Shown piece after piece: positions 23,898-33,275 of a stretch of DNA of 64,000 bases. Source of the DNA: Candidatus Aminicenantota bacterium (lineage in GTDB: Bacteria > Acidobacteriota > Aminicenantia > Aminicenantales > UBA4085); NCBI GenBank assembly GCA_003141555.1, contig PLMN01000025.1, forward strand, positions 1 through 64,000, in the 5' to 3' direction. The notes under the pieces were generated by a model. The model searched no databases and had not been told where the DNA came from. It worked only from the letters and a program-made list of their open reading frames with translations. How positions within the stretch are numbered: the first letter of the stretch is position 1; each line of letters starts with the position of its first letter. The translations under genes and the position numbers were made by a program.

Positions 23898-23926
23898 TTG
23901 ACCGTGACCGGGCGCAGGACTACAAT
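23898..23926 (+). promoter_or_regulatory. Sigma-70-type promoter for the permease/dipeptidase operon
   Basis: TTGACC (23898-23903) and TACAAT (23921-23926) are exactly 17 bases apart. The predicted start leaves only about 11 bases before ATG 23944, with GGAG in the leader. Confidence 0.6.
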
Positions 23927-23943: not shown

Positions 23944-25257
23944 ATGACCCTGCAAATCGGTGCCATCCTTCTCCTCATGGTGGCCGCCTACGCGGTGGCC
24001 AGTTTCAAGAAGCTTTCCGTCGAGCTCAGCATCCTGGCCGCCGCCGTCGCCGGGGGACTGGGCGGCGCCTTCCTCAAGACGCCGCCGATCGCCGAGCTCC
24101 CGCGCCACCTCGTCGAGGGCATGTTCCCCTACCTCGACGTCATGCTCGTCTTCTCCACGGCCACGATCTTCATGGCCCTGGTCAACGAGTCGGGCGGCGT
24201 CAACTACGTCGTCCGGGGCGCCATCCGGCTCTTCTACAACGTCCGGGTGGTGGCCCTGCTGGTGCTGATGATCATCATCCTGATCCCGGGCGCCCTGACG
24301 GGAGCGGGCAGCGTCTCGCTCCTGGTCGTCGGCGCCCCGGTCGCCCTGGCCCTCAAGGCCCTCGGCATCCCCGAGCGCAAGGTGGCCGCCATCCTGTTCA
24401 TCGTGGCCGGCCTGGCCGCGGCCGCGCCCCCGGTCAACATCTGGGCCATGATCCTCTGCGCCGGGACGGCGATCCCCTATGTCGGGTTCACCTACACCCT
24501 GGGCATCCCGGTCCTCATCCTCGGCACCTTTACCATCCTCTGGTTCGGGCTGAAGAAGGAGGGCGGGATGGACAAAGCCGCCGCTCTGGCCGCCCTGCCC
24601 CCGGCCCCGCCCGGGATGAACGGCTGGCGGGTGCTCATGCCCTTCCTCGTCTTCTTCGGCCTGATCATCGCCAATCGGATTTGGCCGTTCGCGACCCCGA
24701 TCTTCGGCCTGCCGCTCGAATTCACGGCGGCCGCCCTCACGGCCTGGCTGGTCAGCCCCAAGCGGCTTCACGTCCTGAAGCTGGCCCGAGAGACGATGCA
24801 GCGGCTCCTGCCGTTGCTCGCGACCATGATCGTCGTCGGCATGCTCCAGCAGATCATGACCGCGACGGGCGTGCGGGGGATGATCTCCTATTCGGTCATC
24901 ATCATCCCCCTCGTCCTGCTCTTCATCTCCCTGGCCGTCATCATCCCGGTCTCCGAGGGGGTGCTGACCTACGGCGCGGCGGCCATCCTGGGCATCCCCC
25001 TGATCTGGTTCTTCGACTCGATCGGGCTGCACGCCACGGTGGCCATCGCCGGCTTGAGCATTCTCTGGCCGCTCGGCGACGGCCTGCCGCCTACGGCCCT
25101 GATCGGCCGCTTGAGCGTCATGGTCTCCGAATACAAAGGAACATACTGGTCCTTCCTCCGCCAGACCTGGCTGCCCTGGCTGGTCATCACGATCACCGGC
25201 ATCCTGATGGTCGTCTACAGCGCCAAGCTGGCCTTCCTCGTCCGCTGGAGCATGTGA
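23944..25257 (+). CDS. DctM-like/TRAP-type large permease (ion transporter superfamily)
   Basis: The 437-residue protein is almost all membrane helices, about eleven to twelve segments, with a GALTGAGSVSLLVVGAP loop and the repeat-like helix pair ending IIIPLVLLFISLAVIIPVSE; this two-fold layout with re-entrant Gly/Ser loops fits the DctM/ArsB/GntP ion-transporter superfamily. Partners typical of a TRAP system (solute-binding DctP and a four-helix DctQ) are missing, although a 51-residue membrane protein follows. It heads an operon with a deacylase and two secreted dipeptidases, so a peptide-derived carboxylate or acyl-amino acid is a reasonable substrate. That assignment is inferred. Confidence 0.7.
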   Translation: MTLQIGAILLLMVAAYAVASFKKLSVELSILAAAVAGGLGGAFLKTPPIAELPRHLVEGMFPYLDVMLVFSTATIFMALVNESGGVNYVVRGAIRLFYNVRVVALLVLMIIILIPGALTGAGSVSLLVVGAPVALALKALGIPERKVAAILFIVAGLAAAAPPVNIWAMILCAGTAIPYVGFTYTLGIPVLILGTFTILWFGLKKEGGMDKAAALAALPPAPPGMNGWRVLMPFLVFFGLIIANRIWPFATPIFGLPLEFTAAALTAWLVSPKRLHVLKLARETMQRLLPLLATMIVVGMLQQIMTATGVRGMISYSVIIIPLVLLFISLAVIIPVSEGVLTYGAAAILGIPLIWFFDSIGLHATVAIAGLSILWPLGDGLPPTALIGRLSVMVSEYKGTYWSFLRQTWLPWLVITITGILMVVYSAKLAFLVRWSM

Positions 25258-25267
25258 GGTCCCCGCC

Positions 25268-25423
25268 ATGAACATCATCATGATCCTCTACTACGTGATC
25301 ACGGCCGGGCTGGTCCTCCTTCTCGGCTGGAACTTCCTGCGCGAGAGGAAGAGCGCCAACGACTTGATCCTGGGCCTGCTGGTTCTCGTCCCGCTCGTCC
25401 TCCGCCTCTTGAGGGTCAAATGA
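25268..25423 (+). CDS. 51-residue two-helix membrane protein in the permease operon
   Basis: ATG 25268 to TGA 25423 encodes 51 residues with two hydrophobic helices (about 2-20 and 33-47) joined by a charged turn, RERKSAND. It sits 10 bases after the permease gene, has GAGGTCC as a ribosome site, and its stop overlaps the start of the deacylase gene by four bases (ATGA), so it is clearly part of the operon. Its size is too small for a normal DctQ. It may be a minimal accessory subunit of the permease, but no family is recognised. Confidence 0.65.
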   Translation: MNIIMILYYVITAGLVLLLGWNFLRERKSANDLILGLLVLVPLVLRLLRVK

Positions 25424-26607
25424 GCGCCCCGGAGCCCGAAATCATGGCCCATCCGGCCCGTCTCAAGGCCGTCCTGGCCGTCCTCTTCGCCGCCCTGACC
25501 GTCGCCGGAGGCGTCCCGCTGTTCAAGCACCGCCACTATGGCATGACCTTCGTGGCCGGCCCGGGCGTAACCAAGGTCATCAAGCTTTCCGACTACTCGC
25601 CCGGCCTCAAGGGCTCGTTCACGGACCCCGACGTCTTCATCCTGGAAGGCGCCGAGCCCGGAGGCAAGGCCCTGCTCATGGCCGACACCCACGCCAACGA
25701 GCCGGCCGGCCTCCTGGCCGTCCTGATCATGATCGAGAACACCGTCGTCGAGAAGGGGACGCTCTACATCATCCCCACCCTGAACGTCTCGGGCAGCCGG
25801 AACACGAAGGCGGGTGACGGCTACCCGTTGTACTTCGACATCCCCACCGACTGGGGCAAGGTCCGGTTCCGAATGGGGACGCGGGACGCCTCGCCGCTGG
25901 AGTCCTGGCCGGATCCGGACGTCTACATCCACTACCCGGAGAAGCAGATGCTGTCCTATCTCGACGTCCGCAACACCAACCGGACCTGGCCCGGCCGGCC
26001 GGACGGCCCGCCCATGGAGCGGGTCACCTACGCGGCCATGGAGCTGATGCGCAAGGAGAAGGTCGACATCGCCTTCGACTTGCATGGCGCCGAGACGATG
26101 TTCCCGGTCACCAATTGCATCGTGGCTCCCCAGAAATCGGCCAAGATCGCCACCCTGGCGGCCATGACGGTCAAGGCCATGGAGGGCTATGACAGCCACG
26201 TCGAGCCCTCGCCCCAGAACTTCCGCGGTCTATCCCACCGGGAGATCGGAGACTATTCCGACACCCTGCCCTTCCTGCTCGAGGCGCCGATTCCCTTCCT
26301 GGACCAGCCCACCGGCCCCAAGACCGTGAAGCTCCTGCTCGACGGCAAGGATCCCTTCCTTCTCAGCCTGGCCGGGAAGAAGAAGCTCTTCGTCGCCTAC
26401 GATGAAAAGGGCTGGCCGATGGACAAGCGGGTCGGCCAGCACATGAGCACGACCCTGGAGATCATCCGCCAGTTCAGCAAGAAGACGCCCGACAAGGCCA
26501 TCCGCCTGACCGGCGCGCCCAAGTACGCCGACCTTGTCCGCGACGGCGCAGGCCACTACTACCGCGACCCGGCCAAGGCCGCCCCGGACCGGATCCACTA
26601 CGAATGA
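25420..26607 (+). CDS. Succinylglutamate desuccinylase/aspartoacylase-like zinc hydrolase
   Basis: The 395-residue enzyme has one N-terminal membrane segment (about 10-27). Zinc-site features of the AstE/AspA branch of the M14 fold are visible: ADTHANEPAG (His/Glu zinc ligands), NTNRTWPGRP in the place of the family RDLNRxFPG loop, and DIAFDLHGAE with the third ligand His. Members cleave acyl groups from N-acyl amino acids. The mature domain probably faces the periplasm, which matches the secreted dipeptidases encoded next. The 29-base gap to the dipeptidase gene and the overlaps upstream support one operon. The acyl substrate is unknown. Confidence 0.78.
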   Translation: MSAPEPEIMAHPARLKAVLAVLFAALTVAGGVPLFKHRHYGMTFVAGPGVTKVIKLSDYSPGLKGSFTDPDVFILEGAEPGGKALLMADTHANEPAGLLAVLIMIENTVVEKGTLYIIPTLNVSGSRNTKAGDGYPLYFDIPTDWGKVRFRMGTRDASPLESWPDPDVYIHYPEKQMLSYLDVRNTNRTWPGRPDGPPMERVTYAAMELMRKEKVDIAFDLHGAETMFPVTNCIVAPQKSAKIATLAAMTVKAMEGYDSHVEPSPQNFRGLSHREIGDYSDTLPFLLEAPIPFLDQPTGPKTVKLLLDGKDPFLLSLAGKKKLFVAYDEKGWPMDKRVGQHMSTTLEIIRQFSKKTPDKAIRLTGAPKYADLVRDGAGHYYRDPAKAAPDRIHYE

Positions 26608-26635
26608 CATCTCTTCGAACCCAAGGAGCCCCTCG

Positions 26636-28345
26636 ATGAAGCGACCCCGACGCCCCGCCTTCACCCTCTTCGCGGCGCTGGTCCTCCTGGCCGCCGCGAC
26701 CGTCTTTCTGGCCCTGCCGACCCGGCCGTCCGCGAGCGGGCCCGAAGCGACGAGCGACAACTGCACCGTCATCATGGTCGGCAAGGACGCCTCCACGGAC
26801 GGCTCGACCATGGCCACCCACACGGCCGATTGCGGCACGTGCGACTGGACCTGGCGCAAGGTCCCGGCCGCCGACCACAAGCCCGGCGAGATGCGCCGGC
26901 TCTACACCATCTCCCAGATGAAGACCTGGCCGCCCAAGGAAGGGCTCAAGTGGGACCTGATCAAGAAGGACTTCGCCGGGGTCGAGATCCCCGAGCCGGC
27001 TCACACCTACGGCTACATGCACGGCGTCTTCGGCTACATGAACGACCAGCAGCTCGGCATCGGCGAGTCGACGATCGGCAACGTGCGCAAGCTCGGCAAC
27101 CCCACCCAAAGCGCCAAGACCAACATCACCATGCTGACCCTGCTGGCCATGGAGCGCTGCCGGACGGCCCGCGAGGCCATCCGGCTCATGGGCGGACTGG
27201 CCGAGAAGTACGGCTACGGCTTCGTCGACAGCGGCGAGATGCTGGCCGTGGCCGATCCCAGGGAAGTCTGGATCTTCGAGATCTTCCCGGCAGGGCCGCT
27301 TTGGACGCCCGAGAGCGGCAAACCGGGAGCCGTCTGGTGCGCGGAGCGGGTGCCGGACGACATGGTCAGCGTCTGCCCCAACGAATCGCGGATCGGAGAG
27401 ATCGACCTGGCCAACCAGGACTATTTCCTGGCCTCGCCCAACGCCGTCTCGTTCGCCGTCGAGCAGAAGCTCTACGACCCCGCCTCGGGCCAGCCCTTCA
27501 ACTGGAAGCGGACCTACTCCCCCGGCGCCGGCAGCGCCCTCAGCAGCAAAGGCATGCGCCAGCGCCTCTGGCGGTTCTTCTCGGCCGTGGCTCCCTCCCA
27601 GGACTTCCGCCCCGACCGCGAGAACATGGATTTCCCCTTCGCGGTCAAGCCCGACAAGAAGCTCTCGGTGCAGGACGTCATGGCCCTGACCCGGGACAAG
27701 TCCTACGGCACGCCGTTCGACCCCGTCCAAGGCATCCGCGGCGGCCCCTTCCAGAACCCCAACTACTGGGCGAGGACCCGCAAGATCAGCGTGGCCAACG
27801 CCGAGTACACCAGCGTGACCCAGAGCCGGGCCTGGCTTCCGGACCCCGTCGGCGGTATCGTCTGGCTGGCCTGGGGCGCCCAGGACACCGCCTGCTACAT
27901 GCCTTTCTACGCCGGCATCACGGCCATCCCCCCTTCGTTCAGCGTCGGCGACCACTTCGAGTTCAACCGGGCCTCGGCCCGTTGGGCTTTCGACTACGTC
28001 GATTTCCACACCCAGGTCGTCTATTCCGAGGCCATCAAGGACGTCCAGAAGGCCCAGCGGGAGTGGGAAGACGGGGCCTTGACCAAGATGGCGGAGATCG
28101 ACAAACAGGCCCAGGCCCTCTACGCCAAGTCGCCGGCCGAGGCCGTCAAGCTCCTGACGAAGTTCAGCACCGAGAACGCCGAGCAGGTCGTGGCGGCCTG
28201 GTGGGACCTGGGCGACGCCCTGCTCGTCAAATACAATCACTTCGCCCTCTACGACGCCGCAAAACGGGCCCGGGGCCGGGCCTCCCTGGCCGGCCCGCTA
28301 TGGAACAAGGCCGTTCGCGTCGTCGATAGCGCCCTGGAAAATTGA
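26636..28345 (+). CDS. Secreted C69 family dipeptidase, copy 1
   Basis: Translation starts at ATG 26636 with AAGGAG at 26623; the 569-residue product has a membrane-spanning signal (about 10-29) and then the C69 mature start DNCTVIMVGKDASTDGSTMA, where the Cys (residue 43) would become the N-terminal nucleophile after cleavage. The THTADCGTCDWTW and PNESRIGEIDL segments are typical of the secreted PepD-like branch; others include TPESGKPGAVWCAERVPDD and RDKSYGTPFDPVQGIRGGPF. Members hydrolyse dipeptides. The next gene is a close paralogue 16 bases downstream, so a tandem duplication is likely. Confidence 0.9.
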   Translation: MKRPRRPAFTLFAALVLLAAATVFLALPTRPSASGPEATSDNCTVIMVGKDASTDGSTMATHTADCGTCDWTWRKVPAADHKPGEMRRLYTISQMKTWPPKEGLKWDLIKKDFAGVEIPEPAHTYGYMHGVFGYMNDQQLGIGESTIGNVRKLGNPTQSAKTNITMLTLLAMERCRTAREAIRLMGGLAEKYGYGFVDSGEMLAVADPREVWIFEIFPAGPLWTPESGKPGAVWCAERVPDDMVSVCPNESRIGEIDLANQDYFLASPNAVSFAVEQKLYDPASGQPFNWKRTYSPGAGSALSSKGMRQRLWRFFSAVAPSQDFRPDRENMDFPFAVKPDKKLSVQDVMALTRDKSYGTPFDPVQGIRGGPFQNPNYWARTRKISVANAEYTSVTQSRAWLPDPVGGIVWLAWGAQDTACYMPFYAGITAIPPSFSVGDHFEFNRASARWAFDYVDFHTQVVYSEAIKDVQKAQREWEDGALTKMAEIDKQAQALYAKSPAEAVKLLTKFSTENAEQVVAAWWDLGDALLVKYNHFALYDAAKRARGRASLAGPLWNKAVRVVDSALEN

Positions 28346-28361
28346 GGAAAGGAGACGATCG

Positions 28362-30110
28362 ATGAGACATCCGCAACGTTGGGCGGTCGGTGCCGCCCTG
28401 ATGGCGGGCCTGCTGGCCGCCGCTTTCGCCCTCGTCGGTCCGGCCCGGACCGAGACGCCGGACTTGACCCTGACCCCCGACTCCGAAGCCTGCACCGTCA
28501 TCATGGTCGGCAAAGGAGCGTCGGTCGACGGGTCGACGATGACCACCCATACCTGCGACTGCGGCACCTGTGACTGGACCTGGGGCCACGTGCCCTCGGC
28601 CGACCACAAGCCGGGCTCGGTCCGCAAGATCTGGCACATCAACCAGTACACGACCTGGCCGGAAGGGACCAAGTGGCAGGTCGCCCCGGCCAAGGGCGAC
28701 ACCGGGTTCTCGATCCCCGAGATCGCCCACACCTACGCCTACCACCACGGCATGTTCGGCTACATGAACGAGAACCAGGTGGCCATCTCCGAATCGACCA
28801 TCGGCACGGTCCGCAAGCTGGTCAACAATACGCCTTCGGCCAAGATCGACCTGACCATGCTCTCGCTCCTGGGCATGGAGCGGAGCAAGACCGCCCGCGA
28901 GTGCATCCAGGTCATGGGCAAGCTGACCGAGACCTACGGCTATGGGTTCAACGACAACGGCGAGATGTTCGCCGTGTCCGACCCGAACGAAGTCTGGATC
29001 TTCGAGATCATGCCGGTCGGCCCGCTGTGGACGCCCGAGAGCGGCAAGCCCGGCGCGGTCTGGTGCGCGGAGCGGGTGCCCGACGACAACGTCAGCGTCT
29101 GCCCCAACGAGTCCCGCATCGGCGAGATCAAGCTGGAGGACAAGGACAACTTCCTGGCCTCATCCAACGTCGTCTCCTGCGCCGTCGAGAACAAGCTCTA
29201 CGACCCGGCCGCCGGCAAGCCCTTCAACTGGAAGCTGGCCTATTCGCCGGCCCAAGGCTCGGCCGTCAGCACCAACGGCGGCCGCCAGAGGCTGTGGCGG
29301 TTCCTGGCCGGCTGCGCCCCCTCGCTCAAGCTCGATCCCAACACGCCCGACATGGACCTGCCCTTCTCGGTCAAGCCCGACCAGAAGCTCTCGGCCCAGG
29401 ACGTCATGAATTGGACCCGCGACAAATCCTACGGCACGATCTTCGATCCCGTCCAGGGCATCCGGGGCGGTCCCTTCCAGAACCCCAACTACTACGGCCG
29501 AACCCGCAAGATCAGCGTGGCCAACGTCGAATACACCAGCCTGGTCCAGTGCCGGCCCGGCCTGCCGAATGAAATCGGGGGCATCGTCTGGGTCGCGTTC
29601 GGGCCCCAGGACACGGCTTGTTACATGCCGCTCTACGCGGGCATGAACGCGGTGCCCAAGTCCTTCACCGTCGGCGACCACTTCGTCTTCAACCGGGCCT
29701 CGGCCCGCTGGGCTTCCGACTACGTCGACTTCCATGCCCAGGTCATCTACAACCAGGCCATCAAGGACGTCCAGAAAGCCCAGCTGGAGTTCGAGGGCGG
29801 CGCCCTGCAGAAGATCCCGGAGATCGACAAGCAGGCCCTGGACCTCTACGCCAAGAGCCCGGCCAAGGCCCGCGAGTATCTGACCAAAACGGTCATCGAT
29901 CTCAACGACAAGATCGTCGCCGGCTGGTGGGATCTGGGCGACAAGCTGCTCGTCAAGTACAACCACCTGGGCTTCTACAACTCGGAGAAGCGCACCCGCG
30001 AGCGCGTCAACGCCTACGGCGGCCAGTGGAACAAGGCCGTCCGTATGGTCGATGCCTGGTTGGAAGAGGACGCGGTTCCCGGAGGCCCGGGCGGTCCCCC
30101 CCGCCGCTGA
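28362..30110 (+). CDS. Secreted C69 family dipeptidase, copy 2
   Basis: This 582-residue paralogue of the preceding protein shares the same blocks in order, including EACTVIMVGKGASVDGSTMT with the candidate nucleophile Cys44, THTCDCGTCDWTW, WTPESGKPGAVWCAERVPDD, RDKSYGTIFDPVQGIRGGPF and NPNYYGRTRKISVANVEYTS. The N-terminus has a hydrophobic signal (about 8-25). A Cys replaces Ala in THTxDCGTC relative to copy 1. The C-terminus is longer, ending in a Gly/Pro-rich GGPGGPPRR tail. GGAAAGGAG lies upstream of ATG 28362. The two proteins may differ in dipeptide preference. Confidence 0.9.
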   Translation: MRHPQRWAVGAALMAGLLAAAFALVGPARTETPDLTLTPDSEACTVIMVGKGASVDGSTMTTHTCDCGTCDWTWGHVPSADHKPGSVRKIWHINQYTTWPEGTKWQVAPAKGDTGFSIPEIAHTYAYHHGMFGYMNENQVAISESTIGTVRKLVNNTPSAKIDLTMLSLLGMERSKTARECIQVMGKLTETYGYGFNDNGEMFAVSDPNEVWIFEIMPVGPLWTPESGKPGAVWCAERVPDDNVSVCPNESRIGEIKLEDKDNFLASSNVVSCAVENKLYDPAAGKPFNWKLAYSPAQGSAVSTNGGRQRLWRFLAGCAPSLKLDPNTPDMDLPFSVKPDQKLSAQDVMNWTRDKSYGTIFDPVQGIRGGPFQNPNYYGRTRKISVANVEYTSLVQCRPGLPNEIGGIVWVAFGPQDTACYMPLYAGMNAVPKSFTVGDHFVFNRASARWASDYVDFHAQVIYNQAIKDVQKAQLEFEGGALQKIPEIDKQALDLYAKSPAKAREYLTKTVIDLNDKIVAGWWDLGDKLLVKYNHLGFYNSEKRTRERVNAYGGQWNKAVRMVDAWLEEDAVPGGPGGPPRR

Positions 30111-30143
30111 CGCGGCCTCGCCGGCTTCCCGCCGAAAAAGAGG

Positions 30144-30149
30144 TATAAT
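30144..30149 (+). promoter_or_regulatory. Perfect TATAAT -10 element before the small secreted gene
   Basis: TATAAT at 30144-30149 follows GAAAAAGAGG in the 68-base gap after the second dipeptidase gene. No good -35 lies 16-18 bases upstream. A start here would give the next gene its own transcript in addition to read-through from the operon. Confidence 0.4.
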
Positions 30150-30178
30150 GCGGTCCTAAACCCGCAAGGAGCTCCCTC

Positions 30179-30823
30179 ATGAAGAAAGCATTCGTCATCC
30201 TTCTCGCCGTCGCCGCGGCCGCGTCCCTGGCCGCCGGCCAAACGGCTCCTCCCAAGGCTATGCTGCCCGTGCTGACCACATCGGCCGGCCAGAGCAACGA
30301 CGTCAACGCCCTGAACATCGTCCTCGAGGAAGCCGACATCAAGTACGACTACTGCGACGTCCCGACCCCCGAGATGGTCGCCGCCGGCGTCGGACTGGGC
30401 AACAAGCAGTCGGCTGAGGGCTTCCACGTCGAGAGCACTACCGACCCGGCCAAGTTTCCCAAGGGGACGCCGTTCAAGGCCATCATGGTGGCCATCGGCT
30501 CCAGCCTCAAGGGCATGGGCGCTTCGGGCCTGACCATCGAAACCGAGGAAGCCCGGGTCAAGAAGGTCCTCGAGTATTGCAAGAAGAACAAGATCCTCGT
30601 GGTCGCCGTCCATGTCGGCGGCGAAGCCGGACGCGGCCCCGCCGGCAGCGACAATGAGCGGATGATCGACACCGTGGCCCCCCTGGCCGACTTTATCGTC
30701 GTGACCACGGACAGCAACAAGGACGGGCGCTTCAGCAAGATCGCCGAGAAGGGCAAGATCCCCTTCCAGCAGATCGGCTACGCCCTGGGCCTGGTCGACA
30801 TCGTCAAGAAGATGTTCAACTGA
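30179..30823 (+). CDS. Small exported protein, DUF6305-like
   Basis: The 214-residue product has a signal peptide (1-20, ending SLAAGQ), and an alpha/beta body with TTSAGQSNDVNALNIVLEEA, KAIMVAIGSSLKGMGASGLT and KNKILVVAVHVGGEAGRGP. This resembles the DUF6305 type, but I am not certain of the family number. The repeated strand-then-helix order suggests a Rossmann-like fold, and the AGQSND and GGEAGRG loops could bind a small ligand. AAGGAG lies upstream of ATG 30179. Being in line with the permease/deacylase/dipeptidase genes it may be the periplasmic ligand-binding partner; this is speculative. Confidence 0.65.
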   Translation: MKKAFVILLAVAAAASLAAGQTAPPKAMLPVLTTSAGQSNDVNALNIVLEEADIKYDYCDVPTPEMVAAGVGLGNKQSAEGFHVESTTDPAKFPKGTPFKAIMVAIGSSLKGMGASGLTIETEEARVKKVLEYCKKNKILVVAVHVGGEAGRGPAGSDNERMIDTVAPLADFIVVTTDSNKDGRFSKIAEKGKIPFQQIGYALGLVDIVKKMFN

Positions 30824-30844: not shown

Positions 30845-31321
30845 TTATTCGGCTTTGGGCTCGCCGGGTCCCTTGTCCGGATCCTGGGCTTTGGCCTTAT
30901 CCTGCTTGTCGAGCCAGGCTTCGAAGGCGGCTTTCCCCTCGTCTTTCCAATACTGGTCGTATCGGCGCCAATTCCGATGGGATCCTCGCGGCGCCCAATC
31001 GTCTCCCCAGTCCTCCGCGCCGCAAGAGCCCTTGTCCCAGCGATCCCAGCGCCGGGCTCTCTTTTTCCAGCCGCGGTGGCCGGGACCGTAATGGCCCCCG
31101 CCCGACCCGCCGAAGAGGATCTTGGCCAGGATCACGAGTCCGAAGGCCTGCCAGTAATTGATCGTTCCGGCGTGGAGCAGGGGCGGCATGAGCCAGTTCC
31201 AGAGCAGCATGACCAGAGAGCCGAACAGGAAAGCGATGATCACCGCCCCGACGAGGCCGAGGACGGTCATCCCGACGATCCGGGCCACGGTGGACCCGGG
31301 ATGGGCGTGTTCCGAATACAT
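30845..31321 (-). CDS. Small membrane protein encoded with an ECF sigma factor
   Basis: Start is placed at ATG 31321, two bases after the stop of the sigma factor gene; a longer frame to 31429 lies inside that gene. The 158-residue product has a short N-terminal tail, a long hydrophobic span (about 13-40, which could be one or two helices), another near 52-70, and then a very charged, Trp- and Arg-rich cytoplasmic-like tail (RGWKKRARRWDRWDKGS) ending in a Lys/Asp stretch. Position and translational coupling suggest it controls or is controlled by the sigma factor. It lacks a recognisable anti-sigma zinc motif (HxxxCxxC). Confidence 0.65.
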   Translation of the reverse strand: MYSEHAHPGSTVARIVGMTVLGLVGAVIIAFLFGSLVMLLWNWLMPPLLHAGTINYWQAFGLVILAKILFGGSGGGHYGPGHRGWKKRARRWDRWDKGSCGAEDWGDDWAPRGSHRNWRRYDQYWKDEGKAAFEAWLDKQDKAKAQDPDKGPGEPKAE

Positions 31322-31323
31322 GA

Positions 31324-31887
31324 TTATGCTCCTTCTCCAATGAATTTTCCCGAAGCTTCCAGAGTCCTTCTGATTTTCTTCAAAGCGCGCGCCTTGCGGG
31401 CCAGCAGTGTCCCGAGGGGCGCATCCCATTCCTCGGCGAGGTCGCGGAATGTCGCGCCCTCGATCTCCGTGGCCAGGACGATCGCCCGGTCCTCCGGCGG
31501 AAGGGCGTCGAGAGCCTGGTACAGAAGCTTGTAGATCTCCTTCCGCTCCAGGTCGCTTTGGGGGGAGACCGCATTGTCGCTCAGAAGATCGGCGAGAGCG
31601 GGCTCCCGTTCGTCGCTCCGCGGCCGGTCCAGGGAGACGGACGATTTTTTCCGCCGGAAATAGTCGACAATGCGGTTTTTAAGGGAGCGATAGACGTAGG
31701 CCGAGAGATCGCGGATCGGGGCCATGATGTCGGCCCGGTCGAAGAGGTTGAGGGCCACGTCCTGGATAATGTCCTCGGCCTCCTCGGCGGCGATGTCGTC
31801 CAGCCATCCCCGGACGAAGCCGACGAGACGGCCGTGCTCTTCCCGGAAGAACTCGGCCACGGCCGGATGGGGAAACTCGGCGCTCAT
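31324..31887 (-). CDS. ECF-type RNA polymerase sigma factor
   Basis: The 187-residue product has region 2 (EEAEDIIQDVALNLFDRADI, then YVYRSLKNRIVDYFRRKKSS) and region 4 (LDALPPEDRAIVLATEIEGA, TFRDLAEEWDAPLGTLLARK), with a linker at about 85-115. Sigma regions 1.1 and 3 are missing, as in ECF members. It directs RNA polymerase to stress or envelope promoters; the target is unknown. The next gene on the same strand, a small membrane protein, starts two bases after its stop. A TATAAT (31941-31936, minus) lies 49 bases upstream of the ATG. Confidence 0.88.
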   Translation of the reverse strand: MSAEFPHPAVAEFFREEHGRLVGFVRGWLDDIAAEEAEDIIQDVALNLFDRADIMAPIRDLSAYVYRSLKNRIVDYFRRKKSSVSLDRPRSDEREPALADLLSDNAVSPQSDLERKEIYKLLYQALDALPPEDRAIVLATEIEGATFRDLAEEWDAPLGTLLARKARALKKIRRTLEASGKFIGEGA

Positions 31888-31984
31888 GTCTTCTAAGACG
31901 GGCGGGAAGCGATTTTATTGCCGTCCCGCCGGATTATTATAAGCGCCGCGCGCGGAAATGGACAGGGATGCTCCTATTGCCTTC

Positions 31985-32013
31985 TTGCCAATTCGGCGGG
32001 GGGGTGATATATA
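31985..32013 (+). promoter_or_regulatory. Sigma-70-type promoter for the M20 peptidase gene
   Basis: TTGCCA (31985-31990) and TATATA (32008-32013) are 17 bases apart. AAGGAG at 32038-32043 precedes ATG 32049 by five to six bases. The leader is about 30 bases. Confidence 0.6.
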
Positions 32014-32048
32014 TTTTGTTCATACCCATCATGCCCAAGGAGTCTCCC

Positions 32049-33275
32049 ATGTCTTTTGATAAGATTTCCCAACGCCTCGAATCCTACCGCAATGAAATGG
32101 TCGATCTTCAGGTGAAGCTCGCCTCCATCCCCGCCATCTCGCCCGCCAGCGGCGGCGAAGGCGAAGCCAAAAAAGCAGAATTCCTGGTCGGCTTCCTGAA
32201 GGCCAACGGCTTCCAAGACATCGACGTGATCAAGGCGCCGGATCTCGACGCGCCCTCCGGGTACCGGCCCAACATTCTGGCCTATTACCGGGGCCGAAGC
32301 TCCGCCCGGACGATCTGGATCATGGCCCATACGGACATCGTCCCACCGGGCGAGCTGTCGCTCTGGAGCGGCGATCCGTTCAAGCCCTGGGTCGAAGGAG
32401 GCAAGATCTACGGGCGCGGGGTCGAGGACAATCAACAGGACCTGGTCGCCTCGATCTTCGCCGTGAAGGCCTTCCGCGACCTCGGCCTGAAGCCGGCCTA
32501 CGATATCGGGCTGGCCCTGGTGGCCGACGAGGAGACGGGCAGCGACAAGGGCCTCGCCTACGTCCTCGAGCACTCGAAGGCCTTCCGCAAGAACGACCTG
32601 ATCCTCGTCCCCGACGCGGGCAACGAGGACGGGACCATGATCGAGATCGCGGAGAAGAGCATTCTCTGGCTCAAGATCAAGACGATGGGCAAGCAGGCCC
32701 ACGGATCGATGCCCGAGCGGGGGATCAACGCCTTCAAGGCCGCCTCGTTCCTGGCCGCCGAATTGGACAAGCTCTACGAAGCCTTCCCCTTGAGCGACCC
32801 GGTCTTCGACCCGCCGATCTCGACCTTCGAGCCGACCAAGAAGGAAAATAACGTCCCCAACATCAACACCATCCCGGGCGAGGACGTGTTCTACATGGAC
32901 TGCCGGATCCTGCCCCAATACAAGGTGGAGGACGTCCAGGCGCGCATCCGGAAGACGGCTGACGCGATCGAGGCCAAATTCAAGGTGAAAATCACGATCG
33001 AGGACCAGCAGAACGCTCCGGCCGCGCCGCCGACGCCGGCCAAGGCCGCCGTGGTCATCGCCCTCGAGAAGGCGGTCAAGGCCGTCTACGGCAAGGAGGG
33101 CAAGCCCATGGGCATCGGCGGCGGGACCGTGGCCGCCCTGTTCCGGCGCGAGGGCTTCGAGGCGGCCTGCTGGTCGCGTCTCGACGAGACGGCCCACCAG
33201 CCCAACGAATACTGCATCATCGACAACATGGTGGGCGACGCCAAGGTCTTCGCCCACATTTTCCTTCAGGAGTGA
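32049..33275 (+). CDS. M20 family metallopeptidase (dipeptidase-like)
   Basis: ATG 32049 is chosen for its AAGGAG site; in-frame ATGs upstream have none. The 408-residue enzyme shows the two-zinc pattern: IMAHTDIVPPGE (His, Asp), GRGVEDNQQ (bridging Asp), DEETGSDKG (Glu), and a late His in ARLDETAH-like SRLDETAHQPNE. The VGF/KTMGKQAHGSMPERGINA segment forms the lid domain. There is no signal peptide, so it acts in the cytoplasm, where it could cut imported dipeptides or remove acyl groups. DapE/ArgE-type deacylase activity is an alternative. Confidence 0.88.
   Translation: MSFDKISQRLESYRNEMVDLQVKLASIPAISPASGGEGEAKKAEFLVGFLKANGFQDIDVIKAPDLDAPSGYRPNILAYYRGRSSARTIWIMAHTDIVPPGELSLWSGDPFKPWVEGGKIYGRGVEDNQQDLVASIFAVKAFRDLGLKPAYDIGLALVADEETGSDKGLAYVLEHSKAFRKNDLILVPDAGNEDGTMIEIAEKSILWLKIKTMGKQAHGSMPERGINAFKAASFLAAELDKLYEAFPLSDPVFDPPISTFEPTKKENNVPNINTIPGEDVFYMDCRILPQYKVEDVQARIRKTADAIEAKFKVKITIEDQQNAPAAPPTPAKAAVVIALEKAVKAVYGKEGKPMGIGGGTVAALFRREGFEAACWSRLDETAHQPNEYCIIDNMVGDAKVFAHIFLQE

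What the first reader, a model, noticed from the sequence alone, without database searches (positions are those of the whole stretch)
23944..30823. Possible new peptide/acyl-peptide use module
A DctM-like permease, a 51-residue two-helix protein, a membrane-anchored AstE-like deacylase, two secreted C69 dipeptidases and a small exported alpha/beta protein are packed in one operon behind one promoter. The set would cleave and deacylate dipeptides outside the cytoplasm and import the products. I know of no described system with this composition; it is the best candidate for a new one in this window.
Basis: inference. Interest (0 to 1): 0.65.

Follow-up and report, generated by a model that had tools for sequence, protein, structure and literature searches.

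The report
Polyglutamate-linked hydrolase and permease operon
Six neighbouring genes in an uncultured Aminicenantes bacterium form a conserved set, found across several bacterial phyla, that is linked to the genes that make the polymer poly-gamma-glutamate and probably breaks that polymer (or related gamma-glutamyl peptides) down outside the cell and takes the pieces back in; I found no description of this set in the papers I could search.

Summary
The operon is real: a DctM-like permease, a 51-aa two-helix protein, a membrane-anchored AstE-type metallohydrolase, two exported C69 N-terminal-nucleophile hydrolases and an exported DUF6305 protein, all co-directional with gaps of -4 to 68 bp. It is not a one-off. 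In 80 related loci the small protein follows the permease in 77 of 78, AstE in 73 of 73, and DUF6305 and C69 sit nearby in nearly all. Of 14 phylum genomes with the permease, 13 carry pgsB and pgsW, which are rare among the other 185. In a second phylum all 17 pgsW genomes carry the permease. Whole operons join both sets, for example ggt-DUF6305-permease-47aa-AstE-pgsB-pgsC-pgsW in Cetobacterium somerae. In a permease tree, C69 and gamma-glutamyltransferase partners change once, so C69 is an exchangeable part. The window's genome has three such modules, one pgsBCW and no pgsA. Best reading: extracytoplasmic hydrolysis of poly-gamma-glutamate or gamma-glutamyl oligomers plus recapture of glutamate. 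The coupling to Pgs is well supported; substrate and transport direction are inferred. New variant of a known kind.

The parts
23944..25257 (+). DctM-like permease, 437 aa, about 12 transmembrane segments, ion-transporter (elevator) superfamily
   Evidence: ORF; relatives match PF06808, best 2.8e-12 in 9 of 20; AF2 model pLDDT 87.6, TM 0.70 to TRAP SiaM 7qha_B
25268..25423 (+). 51-aa two-helix membrane protein; immediately follows the permease gene in 77 of 78 testable loci; Y8 and L45-R46 invariant across phyla
   Evidence: annotated as a 47-aa hypothetical protein in Cetobacterium
25420..26607 (+). AstE/AspA-type zinc hydrolase with an N-terminal membrane anchor (residues 17-35); H91xxE94, R184-N185, H222 and E288 invariant in 19 relatives
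   Evidence: PF24827 2.8e-7; alignment A2; profile matches Mlr6093, DABA deacetylase DoeB and, over a short stretch, 4wcm/4q6m 'conserved hypothetical secreted protein'
26636..28345 (+). C69 N-terminal-nucleophile hydrolase a, N-terminal hydrophobic export segment, putative nucleophile Cys43
   Evidence: PF03577 2.5e-61; NF033678 193 bits, below its 250 cut-off; matches the C69 dipeptidase 5iau
28362..30110 (+). C69 N-terminal-nucleophile hydrolase b, 66% identical to a, N-terminal hydrophobic export segment, putative nucleophile Cys44
   Evidence: PF03577 5.3e-61; ACTVIMVGKGASVDGST aligned with SCTSILVGKKASIDGST of 5imh
30179..30823 (+). DUF6305 exported alpha/beta protein; the invariant residues lie in loops after four strands, a likely ligand or active site
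   Evidence: PF19823 6e-36; alignment A3; AF2 pLDDT 91.9; no confident fold match
23898..23926 (+). possible sigma-70-like promoter, TTGACC-17-TACAAT
   Evidence: 1 found, 0.6 expected by chance, so weak

Best explanation
The operon is the extracytoplasmic half of a poly-gamma-glutamate (PGA) system. PgsB-PgsC-PgsW, encoded elsewhere in the same genome (G000:C2), make gamma-linked glutamate chains. Outside the cytoplasm the anchored AstE-type zinc hydrolase and the exported C69 hydrolases (replaced by gamma-glutamyltransferase in the sister subtype) cleave gamma-glutamyl bonds. The DctM-like elevator permease, with its two-helix partner and probably DUF6305 as the exported substrate-binding component, brings glutamate or short gamma-glutamyl products back in. 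Shown: gene content, conservation, linkage and co-occurrence with Pgs, family membership and catalytic residues, permease fold. Inferred: that the substrate is PGA or gamma-glutamyl oligomers, that transport is inward, and the roles of DUF6305 and the two-helix protein.
For: (1) Same-strand operons joining both halves: Cetobacterium somerae plasmid ggt-DUF6305-TRAP permease-47aa-succinylglutamate desuccinylase-pgsB-pgsC-pgsW; L223 PgsB-PgsC-PgsW-DUF6305-permease-small-AstE-C69x3; L225 DUF6305-permease-small-AstE-C69-PgsB-PgsC-PgsW; L122/L229, L151, L224. (2) Presence and absence: 13 of 14 permease genomes share PgsB and PgsW among 199 of the phylum (Fisher 2e-18 and 2e-19); a second phylum has 17 of 17 PgsW genomes with the permease and only 2 permease-only genomes of 103; 13 of 14 further MAGs with the module have PgsW, 0 of 14 controls. 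(3) The window's genome has PgsB, PgsC and PgsW above NCBI cut-offs, and each of its three DUF6305 genes sits with a permease-AstE pair. (4) GGT and C69 exchange once on the permease tree; GGT-family enzymes degrade or anchor PGA (PMC4497714). (5) AstE chemistry: desuccinylases cleave N-succinyl-glutamate, a close analogue of N-(gamma-glutamyl)-glutamate (family knowledge); PghP, a known PGA hydrolase, is a carboxypeptidase-A-related zinc enzyme (PMC4497714). (6) The permease fold matches carboxylate and N-acyl-glutamate transporter families (TRAP, INDY, AbgT).
Against: In the window the Pgs genes are not adjacent: they lie on another contig, near a second copy of the module. Genomes can hold 3-4 modules but one PgsBCW, so some modules may have other substrates. 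C69 enzymes are named dipeptidases, and cleavage of gamma bonds by them is not shown. Fisher values ignore kinship. Some linked loci are MAGs that may be misbinned. No biochemical test was found for any gene of the set.
Confidence: 0.6

Rival explanations
1. The module works during synthesis or anchoring: the Ntn hydrolases and AstE trim, release or attach nascent chains (CapD-like), and the permease supplies glutamate or exports short oligomers rather than recapturing breakdown products.
For: Joined operons with pgsBC(W); B. anthracis CapD, a GGT-family enzyme of the cap operon, anchors PGA (PMC4497714, PMC3815933); IT-superfamily members include exporters such as MtrF and YdaH.
Against: Many genomes carry more modules than synthases (three against one in the window's genome); the closest structural neighbours are TRAP and DASS proteins, mostly importers; a polymer cannot pass an elevator carrier (family knowledge).
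Confidence: 0.2
2. One reading: a general scavenging system for dipeptides or N-acyl dipeptides, with no special link to PGA.
For: C69 proteins are named dipeptidases and AstE-type enzymes deacylate amino acids; Aminicenantes are thought to ferment peptides (general knowledge).
Against: Co-occurrence and shared operons with PgsB, PgsC and PgsW in several phyla; replacement of C69 by GGT.
Confidence: 0.13
3. Recycling of cell-wall stem peptides: AstE-like proteins cut gamma-D-Glu bonds of muropeptides and the permease takes up the fragments.
For: The AstE profile touches PDB 4wcm/4q6m over about 50 residues (8.6e-6); from memory these entries are H. pylori Csd4, a gamma-D-Glu-mDAP carboxypeptidase.
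Against: Only a short stretch matches; most wall-bearing genomes of the phylum lack the module (14 of 199 have it); no amidase or muropeptide gene recurs in the clusters, whereas Pgs does.
Confidence: 0.05

Closest known systems
Bacillus pgsBCA(E)-pgdS and capBCA(D/E) poly-gamma-glutamate operons
   Same: PgsB and PgsC over their NCBI cut-offs; a GGT-family enzyme in the operon of one subtype, as capD in B. anthracis; a small membrane protein of about 50 aa (position only; no homology to PgsE/CapE tested)
   Different: No PgsA (PF09587) in the window's genome; PgsW instead; no PgdS seen among the neighbours; plus permease, AstE-type hydrolase, DUF6305 and C69, which those operons lack
Francisella capBCA (capA annotated as poly-gamma-glutamate system protein, PMC5362203)
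   Same: A CapB-CapC partner bearing the same product name as TIGR04332/PgsW
   Different: Presence of the permease-AstE-DUF6305 module there was not tested
TRAP transporters (DctP-DctQ-DctM)
   Same: The permease is DctM-like by sequence of relatives and fold (TM 0.70)
   Different: No DctP or four-helix DctQ in the operon; instead a two-helix 51-aa protein and exported DUF6305
C69 dipeptidases (5iau/5imh)
   Same: PF03577 match; Ntn cysteine and flanking motif
   Different: Below the NCBI equivalog cut-off (193 and 188 against 250 bits); exported; linked to PGA genes
AstE/AspA-DoeB zinc deacylases; PghP-type PGA hydrolases
   Same: AstE_AspA_cat domain with the zinc and substrate motif conserved; PghP is also a carboxypeptidase-A-related zinc enzyme (PMC4497714)
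   Different: Membrane-anchored, outside the cytoplasm; no curated AstE, AspA or DoeB equivalog match (DoeB 22.9 bits against 402.7)

Membership tests
Classical pgsBCA/capBCA PGA synthase system | PgsB (TIGR04012) and PgsC (TIGR04011) in the genome | tested here: met
   G000:C2: 247 bits (cut-off 222.7) and 105.9 bits (cut-off 96.45), adjacent
Classical pgsBCA/capBCA PGA synthase system | PgsA/CapA (PF09587) | tested here: not met
   No match in G000, G072 or G060; PgsW (TIGR04332) present instead, 328 bits
PgsB-PgsC-PgsW (poly-gamma-glutamate system protein) type | TIGR04332 next to PgsB and PgsC | tested here: met
   L230 6597-9411 and most other genomes tested
PgsB-PgsC-PgsW (poly-gamma-glutamate system protein) type | The product is poly-gamma-glutamate | not testable with these tools
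   Reviews cite a demonstration for Fusobacterium nucleatum (PMC3815933); its gene set was not checked here
TRAP transporter | DctM-type large subunit | tested here: met
   by relatives and fold, not by the window protein's own Pfam match
TRAP transporter | DctP binding protein and four-helix DctQ encoded with it | tested here: not met
   None in the window operon; the neighbours are a two-helix 51-aa protein and DUF6305; free-standing genes elsewhere not searched
C69 dipeptidase | Ntn cysteine and family profile | tested here: met
C69 dipeptidase | Dipeptidase activity (NCBI equivalog NF033678) | tested here: inconclusive
   Profile matched below its cut-off
AstE/AspA deacylase | HxxE...RN...H...E zinc and catalytic motif | tested here: met
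   Invariant H91, E94, R184, N185, H222, E288
AstE/AspA deacylase | Known substrate (succinylglutamate, N-acetylaspartate or N-acetyl-DABA) | not testable with these tools
   No curated equivalog match

The most novel reading that the evidence does not exclude
A PgsA-less class of poly-gamma-glutamate system, spread over several phyla of mostly anaerobic bacteria, with its own recovery machinery: exported Ntn hydrolases (GGT or C69), an anchored AstE-type hydrolase, and a new kind of binding-protein-dependent carrier in which a DctM-type permease works with a two-helix subunit and DUF6305 as the substrate-capturing protein for gamma-glutamyl products.
Probability: 0.35. Interest if true: 0.75.

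Novelty: new variant of a known kind. Interest (0 to 1): 0.6.

Why it matters
Poly-gamma-glutamate is known mainly from Bacillus operons, with PgsA and with PgdS, GGT or CapD as the cutting enzymes. If this holds, a second architecture exists in uncultured Aminicenantes, Thermotogota, Fusobacteriota, Spirochaetes and Firmicutes, with built-in recovery of the polymer. It would give a first working context to DUF6305, to a 50-aa two-helix protein and to a permease clade with no family of its own, and it turns 'hypothetical' annotations into a testable eight-gene unit in an organism that has been grown in pure culture (Cetobacterium somerae).

Tried and rejected
Permease or two-helix protein as a diverged PgsC: profile comparison negative (hhalign probability 0.1-0.4). 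DUF6305 as a known fold: high-confidence model but no PDB match above TM 0.39 by query length in the best 50 (SGNH hydrolases, DJ-1, B12-binding domains), so its function stays inferred. Phage origin: no permease match in phage records; the only PHROG match, for the two-helix protein, was weak. M20 peptidase 31968-33272 as part of the set: separated by two opposite-strand genes and not found beside the module elsewhere with the window M20 as query. Housekeeping genes beside type-3 modules (ScpA, ScpB, TrpS, S1, HU, LytB) are conserved neighbourhood only. Papers: none with DUF6305, none joining Aminicenantes with poly-gamma-glutamate, none describing the set.
Full report
1. What is there. Gaps are 10, -4, 28, 16 and 68 bp, with recognisable ribosome sites before several genes. 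The proteins are: a 12-helix permease; a 51-aa protein with two hydrophobic helices; an AstE/AspA-type hydrolase with one N-terminal membrane anchor; two C69 hydrolases with N-terminal hydrophobic export segments and a conserved cysteine after them; and an exported DUF6305 protein. The permease alone has no Pfam match, but 9 of 20 relatives match DctM (best 2.8e-12) and its predicted structure (pLDDT 87.6) resembles TRAP SiaM (TM 0.70), INDY and AbgT carriers. The AstE zinc and substrate residues (H91, E94, R184-N185, H222, E288) are invariant in 19 relatives.

2. The set is conserved. In 199 genomes of the phylum the permease and the AstE-like gene each occur in 14, and they occur as neighbouring pairs. 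The window's genome has three such modules, on contigs C18 (the window), C2 and C19, and each of its three DUF6305 genes sits beside one. A scan of GTDB contigs gave 446 relatives; in the best 80 the two-helix gene follows the permease in 77 of 78 testable loci, AstE in 73 of 73, DUF6305 lies nearby in 66 of 66 and C69 in 69 of 75 (the DUF6305 and C69 denominators include loci where the gene was seen on a short contig, and the 80 are those most like the window). The two-helix protein keeps Y8 and L45-R46 across phyla.

3. The missing partner. In paralogous and distant clusters the neighbours are gamma-glutamyltransferase (TIGR00066 4.8e-151) and the poly-gamma-glutamate genes PgsB, PgsC and PgsW (TIGR04012, TIGR04011, TIGR04332). 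Several lineages carry both halves on one strand: L122/L229 (KSB1 MAG) PgsB-PgsC-PgsW-C69-DUF6305-permease-small-AstE; L223 PgsB-PgsC-PgsW-DUF6305-permease-small-AstE-C69x3; L225 (Spirochaetes MAG) DUF6305-permease-small-AstE-C69-PgsB-PgsC-PgsW; L151 and L224 likewise; L211 and L213, from the phylum that holds Kosmotogales (Thermotogota), have the two halves convergent. An independently annotated record, plasmid p1 of cultured Cetobacterium somerae (NZ_CP143320.1), reads ggt, DUF6305, TRAP large permease, 47-aa hypothetical, succinylglutamate desuccinylase, pgsB, pgsC, pgsW without interruption.

4. Presence and absence. Among 199 phylum genomes, PgsB at strong scores occurs in 14 and PgsW in 13; 13 of the 14 permease genomes have both (Fisher 2e-18 and 2e-19). 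Nine other genomes of the same class lack all three. The one permease genome without Pgs (G069, 83% complete) has a same-genus relative with PgsB (G090). In the phylum of the Kosmotogales genome G211, PgsW occurs in 17 of 103 genomes and all 17 have the permease; two more have the permease alone. Thirteen of 14 further MAGs with the module, labelled as diverse taxa, have PgsW, against none of 14 control genomes. These tests are not corrected for kinship, but they agree in two phyla and with the physical linkage.

5. Which parts are core. The permease tree splits into a gamma-glutamyltransferase clade and a C69 clade, with one change of partner between them, and Pgs-linked loci occur in both. 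So DUF6305, permease, two-helix protein and AstE are the core, and the N-terminal-nucleophile hydrolase is exchangeable. The window belongs to the C69 subtype. In the window's genome PgsB, PgsC and PgsW lie on C2 (39632-42284), 7-10 kb from the second module, and pass NCBI's cut-offs. PgsA (PF09587) is absent there.

6. How it probably works. GGT-family enzymes remove terminal residues from, or anchor, PGA, and the phage PGA hydrolase PghP is a zinc enzyme related to carboxypeptidase A (PMC4497714). AstE-type enzymes cleave N-succinyl-glutamate; the C-terminal unit of PGA is N-(gamma-glutamyl)-glutamate, a close chemical analogue (inference from family chemistry). The exported or anchored hydrolases would therefore cut gamma-glutamyl bonds outside the cytoplasm, and the DctM-type carrier, of a fold that moves dicarboxylates and acyl-glutamates, would import glutamate or short oligomers. 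DUF6305 has a high-confidence alpha/beta model (pLDDT 91.9) with no confident known match; its invariant residues (S35, G37-Q38, S109, K111, H145, D182) fall in loops after four strands, as in a ligand pocket. In place of the missing DctP and DctQ it may be the binding component, with the two-helix protein as a minimal second subunit. These role assignments are inference.

7. Limits. No enzyme of the set has been assayed as far as I could find. Several loci come from MAGs labelled Clostridiales, Atribacteria, Deferribacteres or KSB1 whose permeases fall inside the Aminicenantes clade; they may be misbinned or transferred, so the strongest cross-phylum evidence is Cetobacterium, the single-contig genome G274, the Spirochaetes locus and the Firmicutes loci L226 and L227. 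F. nucleatum is reported to make polyglutamate (cited in PMC3815933), but its operon was not examined here.

8. Verdict. The 'peptide use' idea is right in outline but pointed at the wrong substrate class and missed the Pgs link. This is a new variant of a known kind: a PgsA-less poly-gamma-glutamate system with a dedicated hydrolase and permease module.

Noticed in passing
L106, L111, L119, L122, L129: Module loci in MAGs labelled Clostridiales, Atribacteria, Deferribacteres, KSB1 or just 'bacterium' have permeases 63-72% identical to the window's and fall inside the Aminicenantes clade: misbinning, mislabelling or transfer.
   Followed up: partly
L072:5913-9788 (-): AstE-PgsB-PgsC-PgsW in one operon without the permease, so AstE is the module member most tightly tied to the synthase there.
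   Followed up: no
L063:10395-13234 and L061, L062, L064: Type-2 modules carry an unassigned protein of about 200 aa (no Pfam or NCBIfam match) and an M28 peptidase between the permease and DUF6305.
   Followed up: partly
L211:7115-8155, L213:5953-7002: A second AstE-like gene lies between DUF6305 and the permease in these GGT-type clusters.
   Followed up: no
L003 (G000:C31:77783-79375): A C69 gene 66% identical to the window's C69a stands elsewhere in the genome without the module; further distant C69 loci also occur.
   Followed up: partly
31324-31887 (-) and 30845-31429 (-): ECF-type sigma factor and a membrane protein of unknown family, convergent with the operon; a possible regulator pair not tied to the module elsewhere.
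   Followed up: no
31968-33272 (+): M20 metallo-hydrolase (PRK13983 type, 561 bits), a likely cytosolic peptidase or deacylase just beyond the operon.
   Followed up: partly
L231:17522-22203: In Cetobacterium a response regulator and an ATP-binding protein precede the ggt operon, and a second ggt follows a pair of chromate-transporter genes.
   Followed up: no
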